From a virus, in the IMG/VR virus record IMGVR_UViG_3300005664_000046, positions 1 to 29,108 of that record: a stretch of 29,108 nucleotides of DNA; one strand, 5' to 3'. Positions 2,271-4,907 of the stretch are shown here, one piece after another. The notes beneath the pieces are model-generated. The model ran no database searches and had not been told where the DNA came from. It saw nothing but the letters and a program-made list of their open reading frames with translations. The position numbers and the translations under genes were made by a program. Numbering within the stretch: position 1 is the stretch's first letter; the number at the start of each line of letters is the position of its first letter.

Positions 2271-2343
2271 AAGTCCTCCTAGTACATCACTCCGCTACGA
2301 CCAGTTTACCACGATTATGTTAAGATCACTAAAAGGGGGACAC

Positions 2344-2838
2344 ATGAAATATATTTTAATCTTTTTATTAAGTTTTAACATTTCGGCTGAGGTCGCGGTA
2401 CGTGAGTTTAAAGCCTTTCACTGCGGTCCCTGTAAGACCTTAAAGAAGAACGTGATCGATCCTGTCGTAGAGCACTACCGCTGGACGGGCAAGGTCAAAT
2501 GGGAAGTGACCTTAGGCCAAATCAATTCCCTTGATAGGCCAACAAGCGAACGCTATCACTGTCTAGTTAAAGAGGGTGCTGTGGAAGAATTGGCACTTAG
2601 ATTCTTGTTTGAAAATCCAGAAGACACGACTGAACACTTAAGCCCAATACTGAGCGTTCAAAAAAACCTTGTTGATAAATGTATTACAGACGGCGGTGGT
2701 AAGTCTTTTTTTGACTCTGAGCTAGAAAAAGTAAAATCCGCTGGCATTAGATCCTTTCCTACCTTGTGGATCAATGGAAAAGCCGTTGCCACTCCAAGCA
2801 CGCCGAGTCAGCTTATTAATTTAATAGAGGGCAGTTGA
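2344..2838 (+). CDS. Exported thioredoxin-like (Dsb-type) protein
   Basis: A 164-residue protein that probably works on disulfide bonds outside the cytoplasm. Residues 1-15 form a Sec signal peptide (MKYILIFLLSFNISA, cleavage before E16). The mature part starts a thioredoxin fold with the active-site pair C27-G-P-C30. The cis-proline loop is near the C-terminus (SFPTLWING), followed by a final helix. Between them lies a long helical insertion with two further cysteines, which suggests a DsbA/DsbC-like rather than a plain thioredoxin arrangement. CGPC is the thioredoxin-type dipeptide, so reduction or isomerisation is more likely than oxidation; this is inference. The ATG at 2344 is chosen because GGGGG precedes it and the signal peptide starts there; an in-frame ATG at 2317 lacks such a site. 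It stands alone and diverges from 2136-2270. Confidence 0.8.
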   Translation: MKYILIFLLSFNISAEVAVREFKAFHCGPCKTLKKNVIDPVVEHYRWTGKVKWEVTLGQINSLDRPTSERYHCLVKEGAVEELALRFLFENPEDTTEHLSPILSVQKNLVDKCITDGGGKSFFDSELEKVKSAGIRSFPTLWINGKAVATPSTPSQLINLIEGS

Positions 2839-2991
2839 AGCTTAAGGCTAAAGAGTTGTTAAAGTACCGCCCTCGAGGGGCTGACTAATCTAGGCTCAAA
2901 TAAAAATCAAGATAAAAGACGACTCTCAATCTTCGGTTTTTGTTTTAGGAGACCCCTTGAAACGAAAGCCGTCTATTTAGGTTAACACATT

Positions 2992-3009
2992 GGTTCTCAC
3001 CTTAGAACC
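2992..3009. repeat. Perfect 6-base hairpin in the non-coding region
   Basis: GGTTCT (2992-2997) and AGAACC (3004-3009) enclose a six-base loop. The next bases (CCCCA around 3008-3012) could instead pair with TGGGG at 3043-3047, closing a larger structure that contains the GGCCTTCGGCC hairpin at about 3014-3024. The two pairings share bases and so exclude each other. Confidence 0.45.
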
Positions 3010-3085
3010 CCAAGGCCTTCGGCCCTACCGCGCTTCGCTTGCTGGGGGGCTTCGCTAACGCTATTGTTTTTCGGGCTCATAGTAA

Positions 3086-3117
3086 GAAGCCTCTTGAACT
3101 TTCGCTCAAAAGGCTTC
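3086..3117. repeat. Imperfect 12-base hairpin
   Basis: GAAGCCTCTTGA (3086-3097) pairs with TCAAAAGGCTTC (3106-3117) with a single C/A mismatch and an eight-base loop. No T-run follows on either strand, so it is not an ordinary intrinsic terminator. Confidence 0.55.
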
Positions 3118-3137
3118 AAACTAATTTTGCTAATAAA

Positions 3138-3183
3138 TTAATTGTCTTGATTATAGCCTTAAACAAATAAATCAAACAATTAA
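3138..3183. repeat. AT-rich 14-base inverted repeat
   Basis: TTAATTGT and TTGATT (3138-3152, with one extra C at 3146) match AATCAAACAATTAA (3170-3183) over all 14 positions, leaving a 17-base loop. It sits in the most AT-rich part of the gene-free region, just before the structured block. It could be a protein-binding palindrome, an origin element or part of a larger RNA. Confidence 0.55.
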
Positions 3184-3285
3184 AATATGTAGAATCTTAC
3201 GAGAAAATAAAGAATCGTGAGGCACTTCTATCGTTTTGACTGCCTTTTAGACACTAAACAATAAGGCTAAATGGTTACGGCACTG

Positions 3286-3506
3286 CCCTAGCTCCGGATC
3301 GACAGGACTAGAAATAGCGGACTCCTCCGTTTGTTAGGGTACGGTTGGCGCGCAGTAGTTGGTGTCTCGGGAGTGGTGTCCCAGACTTTACTCGGTTCCT
3401 TACTGAGTGCTGAAAATACAGCATTGAGTAAAGGACCGATTGACAGCGAACCGTCGACCCGCTTGACTTCCTTGCTGAAACTTTCGGCACACATAAGTAA
3501 GGGAAG
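3286..3506 (+). ncRNA. Candidate multi-domain structured RNA upstream of HNH gene
   Basis: A long-range stem pairs GGGTACGGTT (3337-3346) with AACCGTCGACCC (3449-3460), with a CG bulge. Inside it are two hairpins. The first is GTCTCGGGA (3364-3372) with TCCCAGAC (3379-3386). The second is a 20-position stem, 3393-3412 with 3419-3438 around a six-base loop, with 16 Watson-Crick pairs, 2 wobble pairs and 2 mismatches. This makes a three-way junction. A third hairpin follows (3467-3473 with 3499-3506, containing GCTGA/TCGGC). CCCTA at 3286-3290 can pair with TAGGG at 3335-3339, competing with the long-range stem. The strand is assumed from the gene that follows at 3539. I do not recognise the RNA class; group I and group II intron core motifs were not found. 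Confidence 0.5.
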
Positions 3507-3538
3507 GACACCCACTTTTGCCTAAAATCGGAGGATGA

Positions 3539-4054
3539 ATGGACAGCTTTTACGAAGAACCGATATCAGAACTTGAGCCCGCAAGGGGTGGTTACCTACG
3601 TCATAAGAAAACTAAAAGACTGTGGCACCGGATAGTGTGCGAGAAATATCACGGAGGATTCCCAAGTATTTGGGTAGTCCACCATTTGGACGGAGTCAAA
3701 AGCAACAACCATCCAGATAACTTAATTGCTCTGCCTAAGGCTGTGCACGATAACTTACACCGTATGCACGAGCTTAATTACCTACCACCAAGGTCAGTTG
3801 TTGAAAGTTATCTTGATTGCTATTTAAAAAACTTAAAAAGAAAGGACAGAGAAAAGCTTCGTAAGCTTCGAGAAAAGGCCGATATTATAGTTAAAAAGAA
3901 AAAAGCAGCAAAACCAACCTTAAAAAAAGAAGAAAGGAAAAGGCTTTTGAAAGAAAGAGGGATTTCTCGTAAGAATTTTAAAAATAACTATCCGCACGAC
4001 GCGAGTAATGAGTTCTTAAAAAATAACCTTGCAAACGAAAACAAAATCTATTAG
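3539..4054 (+). CDS. HNH endonuclease with long basic tail
   Basis: A 171-residue HNH nuclease. The core is H48-H49, D51-G52, N57, N61-L62 and H70/H74 (WVVHHLDG ... NHPDNLIAL ... HDNLH). After about residue 95 the protein is a long Lys/Arg-rich helical tail that likely binds DNA or RNA without strict specificity. The ATG at 3539 follows CGGAGGA closely (about 4 bases), a slightly tight but strong site. It lies immediately after the candidate structured RNA and is followed by an intrinsic terminator at 4085-4121, so RNA and gene may form one transcript. It is either a free-standing mobile nuclease or a nuclease tied to the RNA element; the second idea is inference. Confidence 0.82.
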   Translation: MDSFYEEPISELEPARGGYLRHKKTKRLWHRIVCEKYHGGFPSIWVVHHLDGVKSNNHPDNLIALPKAVHDNLHRMHELNYLPPRSVVESYLDCYLKNLKRKDREKLRKLREKADIIVKKKKAAKPTLKKEERKRLLKERGISRKNFKNNYPHDASNEFLKNNLANENKIY

Positions 4055-4084
4055 ATCTTAATTGTTACTTAGCGGTAATAAATT

Positions 4085-4121
4085 AAAACCCTTTGAGAAA
4101 TCTTAGGGTTTTTGTTTTTTT
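4085..4121 (+). terminator. Rho-independent terminator after HNH gene
   Basis: AAAACCCT (4085-4092) and AGGGTTTT (4105-4112) form a perfect 8-base stem around a 12-base loop, and a T-rich run continues to 4121. It ends transcripts from the HNH gene and separates them from the recombination cluster. Confidence 0.85.
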
Positions 4122-4160
4122 CTTGCATTCATCAAACAAACATACTAAACATTGTCATCC

Positions 4161-4199
4161 TTGACTTTAGGTCCTCTCAAGGCTCTAGCCTTAAGTCAA
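4161..4199. promoter_or_regulatory. Nested inverted repeats in the leader of the ERF gene
   Basis: TTGACTT (4161-4167) is the exact inverse of AAGTCAA (4193-4199). Directly inside is AAGGCT-CT-AGCCTT (4179-4192). Together they form a 13-base stem interrupted by an 11-base bulge on the left side. It lies 55-93 bases before the GTG start of the ERF gene. TTGACT could also serve as a -35 box, but no good -10 box follows at 17 bases. Confidence 0.4.
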
Positions 4200-4253
4200 A
4201 CGTGTATTCATACAACACTAAAGAGCCTTCAATTTACCGCTAAGGAGAAGACC

Positions 4254-4907
4254 GTGACCGCTACCCTGCCACTAATCTATCAACGCATCCCAAAAATAAT
4301 GAATGAACTTAAGGCTGTCAAAAAAGAAAAGACTGCCATGGGCTATAAGTTTCGCGGTGTAGACGACGTCTATCTCGCCTGTCAGAAGGTCTTAGCTGAT
4401 AACGGGGTGTTTACAGTCCCGGAAGTTCTAGAAGAAAGGTCAGAAGAAAGAACAAGTAAAGGCGGAGCGGTTCTCGTATACAGAATATTAAAAATGCGCT
4501 TTAAGTTTTTTGCTGAAGACGGAAGCTATGTCGAGGCAACCGTTATAGGTGAGGGAATGGACTCAGGTGACAAAGCCTCAAACAAGGCGATGTCCGTCGC
4601 TCACAAATATGCAATCCTGCAAGTCTTTATGATTCCCACAGACGAGCCAAAAGACCCTGAGATAGACTCTCATGAGGTAGCGCCTAAGAAAATCGATTCT
4701 AGACCCCTCAGCGCCTCTTTAAACCAACCTAAAGTCGATCCTTGGGAAACGATTTTAGCAACGGGTCAAAAGAACGGGTGGGATGCGCTATCCTTAACTG
4801 AATACATCAAGGATATTTTTGGTAAAGTAGCCTTTTCGGAACTCACCCGCGAAGAACAAATACAACTCTATAAGGCCGTAAGTGCCTATGGTCCCACACA
4901 TCCTTGA
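4254..4907 (+). CDS. erf: ERF-family single-strand annealing recombinase
   Basis: This 217-residue protein matches the ERF family of phage annealing proteins, which coat single strands and pair homologous ends during phage recombination and circularisation. The N-terminal block IPKIMNELKAVKKEK followed by GYKFRGVDDVY is typical. So is the DSGDKASNKAMSVAHKYAIL block near residues 105-130, ending in the IPTDEP motif. The C-terminal part after a Pro/Ser-rich linker is a small helical domain (DPWETILATGQKNGW). The GTG at 4254 is chosen because AAGGAG lies 6 bases upstream; the frame runs back to a TTG at 4152 through the leader palindrome, but that part has no ERF similarity. It heads a plus-strand cluster that includes SSB. 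Confidence 0.88.
   Translation: MTATLPLIYQRIPKIMNELKAVKKEKTAMGYKFRGVDDVYLACQKVLADNGVFTVPEVLEERSEERTSKGGAVLVYRILKMRFKFFAEDGSYVEATVIGEGMDSGDKASNKAMSVAHKYAILQVFMIPTDEPKDPEIDSHEVAPKKIDSRPLSASLNQPKVDPWETILATGQKNGWDALSLTEYIKDIFGKVAFSELTREEQIQLYKAVSAYGPTHP

What the first reader, a model, noticed from the sequence alone, without database searches (positions are those of the whole stretch)
2839..3538. Large, hairpin-rich non-coding region with a probable multi-domain structured RNA next to an HNH gene
Seen directly: at least eight inverted repeats in 700 gene-free bases. They end in a three-way-junction-like block (3337-3460) with a 20-position hairpin (16 Watson-Crick pairs, 2 wobbles) and a closing long-range stem, followed by a further hairpin at 3467-3506. 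CCCTA at 3286-3290 and the ACCC of the closing stem compete for the same GGG, which would allow two alternative folds. Known: phages carry large ornate RNAs, mobile introns with HNH genes and RNA-guided HNH systems. Inference: this is an RNA element, possibly working with the HNH gene that follows, of a class I do not recognise. A replication origin is the main alternative.
Basis: partly seen in the sequence, partly recalled or inferred. Interest (0 to 1): 0.75.

Follow-up and report, generated by a model that had tools for sequence, protein, structure and literature searches.

The report
Two divergent structured RNAs beside HNH gene
A 700-base gene-free stretch of an uncultured phage contains the two most strongly folded RNA-like blocks of the whole sequence, facing away from each other, and one of them probably forms the long folded leader of a DNA-cutting (HNH) gene; no related sequence was found to prove it.

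Summary
In 626 strand-windows of 124 nt across the 29 kb, the two lowest folding z-scores both fall in this region. On the plus strand, 3337-3460 is a compact three-way-junction domain (z -5.6, 0 of 1000 shuffles fold as well). No Rfam family reaches its gathering cut-off and no ORF is supported. The CCCTA stem and the closing stem exclude each other and are nearly isoenergetic (-93.7 vs -93.5 kcal/mol).

Best reading (0.4): 3272-3538 is the structured 5' leader of the HNH gene (3539-4054) and tunes its translation, as RNA hairpins do for phage homing endonucleases. The Shine-Dalgarno pairing that would do this is only weakly supported (41 of 1000 shuffles match it; little occupied in the ensemble).

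No homologue of RNA or HNH protein turned up in the phage, plasmid, viral or species collections searched, or in 1.1 Mb of relatives, so covariation could not be tested. A close relative (81% portal identity) lacks the cassette and has a replication-type gene and DnaA-box-like repeats there. An origin or non-functional palindromes remain possible.

The parts
2934..2971 (+). 16-pair hairpin followed by TCTATTT: terminator-like, probably ends the DsbA-like gene transcript (2317-2838)
   Evidence: terminator scan; such hits are also expected by chance; stretch 2925-2980 z -4.78 on plus, 0.15 on minus
2980..3143 (-). minus-strand structured block: GAAA-capped 3080-3123 hairpin, branched domain with GAA mini-hairpins, small hairpin, closing stem
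   Evidence: MFE -58.1 equals the centroid, z -4.49, 0/200; 3070-3193 minus has the lowest z of 626 windows, -7.7
3150..3179 (-). promoter-like TTGTTT-18-TATAAT, would start the minus RNA near 3143
   Evidence: PWM score 9.15, the best minus-strand site of the region; consensus match only
3130..3235 (.). AT-rich spacer between the two blocks (18% GC at 3139-3188)
3236..3265 (+). weak promoter-like TTGACT-18-AATAAG that would start the plus RNA near 3272
   Evidence: sequence; PWM rank 327 in the window, so weak
3284..3341 (+). P0: helix 3284-3292/3333-3341 (CCCTA core), excludes P1; its loop holds the anti-SD
3323..3329 (+). anti-Shine-Dalgarno TCCTCCG, complementary to 3529-3535
   Evidence: I24; 41/1000 shuffles have as long a Watson-Crick match
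3337..3460 (+). three-way-junction domain: P1 closing stem 3337-3346/3449-3460, hairpin A 3364-3386, long hairpin B 3393-3438
   Evidence: z -5.58, 0/1000; most stable 124-nt window of the phage
3467..3506 (+). further hairpin of the leader
   Evidence: stretch 3461-3510 z -2.29 on plus, 0.31 on minus
3529..3535 (+). CGGAGGA, Shine-Dalgarno of the HNH gene
   Evidence: sequence
3539..4054 (+). HNH_3 endonuclease gene, 171 aa
   Evidence: Pfam PF13392 5.4e-13; PHROG HNH endonuclease families
4087..4120 (+). AACCCT...AGGGTT stem followed by a T-run: probable intrinsic terminator after the HNH gene
   Evidence: I6

Best explanation
The plus-strand block (about 3272-3538) is the long structured 5' leader of the HNH gene's mRNA and limits or times translation of the nuclease. 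While being made, the leader first forms P0; once 3449-3460 exists, P1 can displace P0 and build the three-way-junction domain. Displacing P0 frees the anti-SD 3323-3329, which can then pair with the Shine-Dalgarno 3529-3535 (nested outside P1, impossible with P0). Shown: the folds exist, exceed chance and are mutually exclusive; the SD/anti-SD complementarity is compatible only with P1. Inferred: transcription on the plus strand, which fold is used, and any effect on translation. The minus-strand block is taken as a separate divergent transcript or leader, role unknown.
For: Strong plus-strand fold directly 5' of an HNH gene with a good SD. P0 and P1 states near-isoenergetic, -93.7 vs -93.5 kcal/mol. 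3461-3510 folds on the plus strand only (z -2.29 vs 0.31), and 3337-3460 is more stable on plus (-56.1 vs -45.2). Probable plus-strand terminator after the HNH gene, so the HNH is its own unit. Precedent: RNA structures at the RBS repress I-TevI and Aeh1 mobE (an HNH gene) (PMC2988022, PMC3014915).
Against: No homologue, hence no covariation. SD largely unpaired in the ensemble (0.6-0.7 over most of it for 3272-3545) and the SD-lock state 2.8 kcal/mol above MFE with P1. A match as long as the anti-SD occurs in 41/1000 shuffles (88% if G-U is allowed). The plus promoter is weak. The strand difference in stability is not rare (8% of windows as large). A 265-nt leader is far larger than a simple RBS hairpin.
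Confidence: 0.4

Rival explanations
1. A divergent pair of stand-alone non-coding RNAs: a minus RNA of about 160 nt (3143 to 2980) and a plus RNA (3272 to about 3512) made from the AT-rich spacer and acting in trans or as structural RNAs; the HNH gene is merely downstream.
For: The minus block is the best-defined fold (MFE equals centroid), sits behind a perfect TATAAT, has no minus-strand gene to lead within 800 nt, and both blocks top the window-wide scan.
Against: No clear intrinsic terminator after either block; promoters are consensus matches only; no homologues; the plus block runs straight into the HNH SD.
Confidence: 0.2
2. A DNA element: replication origin or another site used as DNA hairpins, with the AT-rich spacer as unwinding region.
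For: In the relative G003 the same slot, between the conserved minus-strand membrane-type gene and the ERF gene, holds repeated TTATCCACA DnaA-box-like sites and a replication-type gene; the window slot is AT-rich and hairpin-rich.
Against: No DnaA box in 2839-3538 and no iterons, only two-copy short repeats; no cumulative GC-skew turn near 3.2 kb; the two blocks prefer opposite single strands.
Confidence: 0.15
3. No RNA function: an assortment of terminator-like hairpins and imperfect palindromes left by mobile-gene insertion in a non-coding slot.
For: The slot differs wholly from that of a close relative; four HNH-like genes lie nearby; no conservation is known; many bacterial intergenic regions hold palindromes; hairpin B alone is stable on both strands (z -7.5/-6.1).
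Against: Structure remains significant after removing hairpin B (z -4.4, 0/1000); the junction is organised, not just separate palindromes.
Confidence: 0.2

Closest known systems
RBS-sequestering RNA structures of phage homing endonucleases (I-TevI, I-TevII/III, T4 segB, Aeh1 mobE)
   Same: Folded mRNA immediately upstream of a phage endonuclease gene, including an HNH one; structure plausibly limits nuclease synthesis (PMC2988022, PMC3014915).
   Different: Here the leader is about 265 nt with a three-way junction and two exclusive folds; SD sequestration is weak in silico; no late promoter that removes the structure is shown.
HEARO/omega RNAs of IscB (RNA-guided HNH systems)
   Same: Structured RNA just 5' of an HNH gene.
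   Different: No Rfam match even at E<=10; the protein is a 171-aa HNH_3 protein with no RuvC-type or other domain hit.
Mobile group I introns with HNH genes
   Same: Structured RNA next to an HNH gene in a phage.
   Different: No intron model match (E<=10); the element lies between complete genes and splits no recognisable exon.
Large ornate phage RNAs (GOLLD, ROOL)
   Same: Large folded RNA-like region in a phage.
   Different: Much smaller blocks, no Rfam match, no tRNA genes in the window.

Membership tests
RBS-sequestering leader of a homing endonuclease | stable structure in the mRNA upstream of the endonuclease start | tested here: met
RBS-sequestering leader of a homing endonuclease | Shine-Dalgarno paired in the structure | tested here: inconclusive
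   7-bp complement exists but 41/1000 shuffles match it and the SD is mostly unpaired in the ensemble
RBS-sequestering leader of a homing endonuclease | measured change of translation when the structure is broken | not testable with these tools
   needs a reporter experiment
HEARO/omega RNA with IscB | match to the HEARO RNA family | tested here: not met
HEARO/omega RNA with IscB | RuvC-like nuclease domain flanking the HNH | tested here: not met
   171 aa, only HNH_3 in Pfam
Group I or II intron | conserved catalytic core | tested here: not met
   no match at E<=10 in 2700-4200; a very divergent or split core is not strictly excluded
tmRNA | tRNA-like domain and tag reading frame | tested here: not met
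   ARAGORN 0 genes; Rfam none at E<=10, despite the tmRNA-like string GGATCGACAGG at 3296-3306
Replication origin | DnaA boxes or initiator iterons | tested here: not met
Any structured RNA family | covariation of base pairs across homologues | not testable with these tools

The most novel reading that the evidence does not exclude
The phage makes two divergent structured RNAs of a so far undescribed class from one AT-rich promoter spacer, one of them a two-state switch that gates expression of a mobile HNH nuclease.
Probability: 0.15. Interest if true: 0.6.

Novelty: new variant of a known kind. Interest (0 to 1): 0.38.

Why it matters
Homing endonucleases cut DNA and are known to be held down by small RNA hairpins in T4-like phages. 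A 265-nt two-state leader doing the same in an unrelated, uncultured phage would extend that to a riboswitch-like design. The minus-strand block would be a second orphan RNA. As it stands both are single-sequence candidates, worth keeping for the time when relatives are sequenced.

Tried and rejected
Known RNA families: none at gathering cut-offs; at E<=10 only MIR1219 (29.4 bits against a 79-bit cut-off; it fits hairpin B alone) and noise. tmRNA, because of the string GGATCGACAGG: no T-arm found by eye, no model match. phi29 pRNA, because of the three-way junction: no Rfam match. Protein coding: ORFs 3331-3525 (+), 3288-3515 (-) and 3308-3511 (-) have no PHROG hit, the plus frame has no tblastn hit in phages, and codon scores are -0.31 or lower on plus, -0.19 or lower on minus, against about 0.1 for most phage genes, with off-frames of real genes reaching -0.12; no SD seen. 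Homologue searches: RNA region by blastn in phages and plasmids; 17-22-mers in viral contigs, whose only hits (3 contigs with one 17-mer) do not fit the model; covariance models R1 and R2 over 1.1 Mb of relatives, only self and antisense matches; HNH protein in viral contigs, species genomes, phages and relatives, only distant HNH hits; ERF protein in viral contigs and portal alignment in species genomes, no relative; conserved neighbour gene, only G003 and L006.

Full report
Setting. The window is a 29,108-base IMG/VR virus record. Its portal protein matches a phage of Silvanigrella aquatica at 29% identity, and three IMG/VR contigs encode a portal about 80% identical. Around the finding: a DsbA/thioredoxin-like gene 2317-2838, the 700-base stretch, an HNH_3 gene 3539-4054, and an ERF recombinase gene whose frame is listed as 4152-4907, probably starting at 4251.

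The observation. The stretch has 23 helices of 8 or more consecutive pairs against 10.6 +/- 3.4 in shuffles, and the 700 nt as a whole has z -4.99. Domain 3337-3460 has z -5.58 with 0 of 1000 shuffles, and -4.4 with 0 of 1000 after removal of its long hairpin. No other 124-nt window of the phage reaches its stability. In a scan of 626 strand-windows the two lowest z-scores are 3070-3193 on the minus strand (-7.7) and 3337-3460 on the plus strand (-6.1) (25 shuffles each, so rough).

Two blocks, not one. Block 2985-3130 folds better on the minus strand (z -4.75 against -1.85); 2980-3143 minus has an MFE structure identical to its centroid. On that strand its main hairpin is capped by GAAA and smaller ones by GAA. 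A TTGTTT-18-TATAAT lies just upstream on the minus strand. Between the blocks lies an AT-rich spacer. The 2934-2971 hairpin is terminator-like on plus and its stretch is significant only there (z -4.78 against 0.15). So the left part is best read as the end of the DsbA-like transcript plus a possible divergent minus RNA.

The plus block. P0 (3284-3292/3333-3341) and P1 (3337-3346/3449-3460) share 3337-3341 and cannot coexist. Forced to either, the 3272-3545 RNA has nearly the same energy, -93.7 and -93.5 kcal/mol. CGGAGGA 3529-3535 (the HNH Shine-Dalgarno) is complementary to TCCTCCG 3323-3329, inside the P0 loop; pairing the two is nested with P1 but not with P0. This gives a possible switch logic. 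The support is modest: 41 of 1000 shuffled leaders have as long a Watson-Crick match, 883 of 1000 if G-U is counted; the lock costs 2.8 kcal/mol with P1; and the SD is largely unpaired in the ensemble.

What it is not. No Rfam family reaches threshold, and group I/II introns, tmRNA and HEARO do not appear even at E<=10. There are no tRNAs. No ORF in the stretch has family or tblastn support or an SD, and codon scores are those of off-frames. The HNH protein matches HNH_3 and PHROG HNH endonucleases, with no other domain; a weak PADLOC hit to a homing-endonuclease model (E 9e-6) fits a homing nuclease.

Relatives. G003 (36 kb, portal 81% identical) was compared gene by gene. It keeps the minus-strand gene equivalent to 1861-2139 and downstream genes equivalent to 4966, 5243 and 6388, but between that minus gene and ERF it has three other genes, the first of replication type, preceded by repeated TTATCCACA sites (read), and no DsbA-like gene, RNA or P0001. 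The cassette is therefore lineage-specific; whether it was inserted or lost cannot be told from two genomes. No homologue of either RNA block was found by blastn, exact words or covariance models built on the single sequence. Such single-sequence models and exact words reach only fairly close relatives, and the tools may withhold near records, so absence here is weak evidence.

Mechanism. The best-supported reading is a cis-acting leader that limits HNH nuclease synthesis. Folded leader RNAs with this role are established for I-TevI and for the HNH gene mobE of Aeh1 (PMC2988022, PMC3014915). Fold, position and exclusivity are shown; transcription, switching and regulation are inferred. An origin is supported only by synteny with G003; DnaA boxes, iterons and a GC-skew turn are absent here. 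Non-functional palindromes cannot be excluded without homologues.

Verdict. A genuine, well-folded but orphan element; interesting as a candidate, unproven as a new RNA class.

Noticed in passing
L002 963-3384: In a relative (IMGVR_UViG_3300015360_000493) the large-terminase gene is interrupted by what looks like an intein with an HNH region inside; the frame is split into two overlapping ORFs at 1747-1769 (split intein or frameshift). The window's terminase has none.
   Followed up: no
window 4068-4078 and 4234-4244: Perfect 11-bp inverted repeat (CTTAGCGGTAA/TTACCGCTAAG) flanking the HNH terminator and the ERF leader; the second arm abuts the ERF Shine-Dalgarno.
   Followed up: no
window 2317-2838: DsbA/thioredoxin-like gene (Pfam Thioredoxin_4, 7.6e-12) in a phage early region, with no tblastn match in 50,697 phage records.
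   Followed up: partly
L087 9880-9930 and 10080-11012: Relative G003: repeated TTATCCACA DnaA-box-like sites before a replication-type gene that carries an in-frame GAGACTAGAGAT tandem repeat.
   Followed up: no
L087 15656-16438: Relative G003: small ORFs rich in Ser-Trp-Ser-Arg repeats.
   Followed up: no
window 3440-3468: TTGACA-17-TTGACT promoter-like site inside the plus block (best-scoring plus-strand site of the region); if real it would give an HNH transcript lacking most of the structure, as late promoters do for I-TevI.
   Followed up: partly
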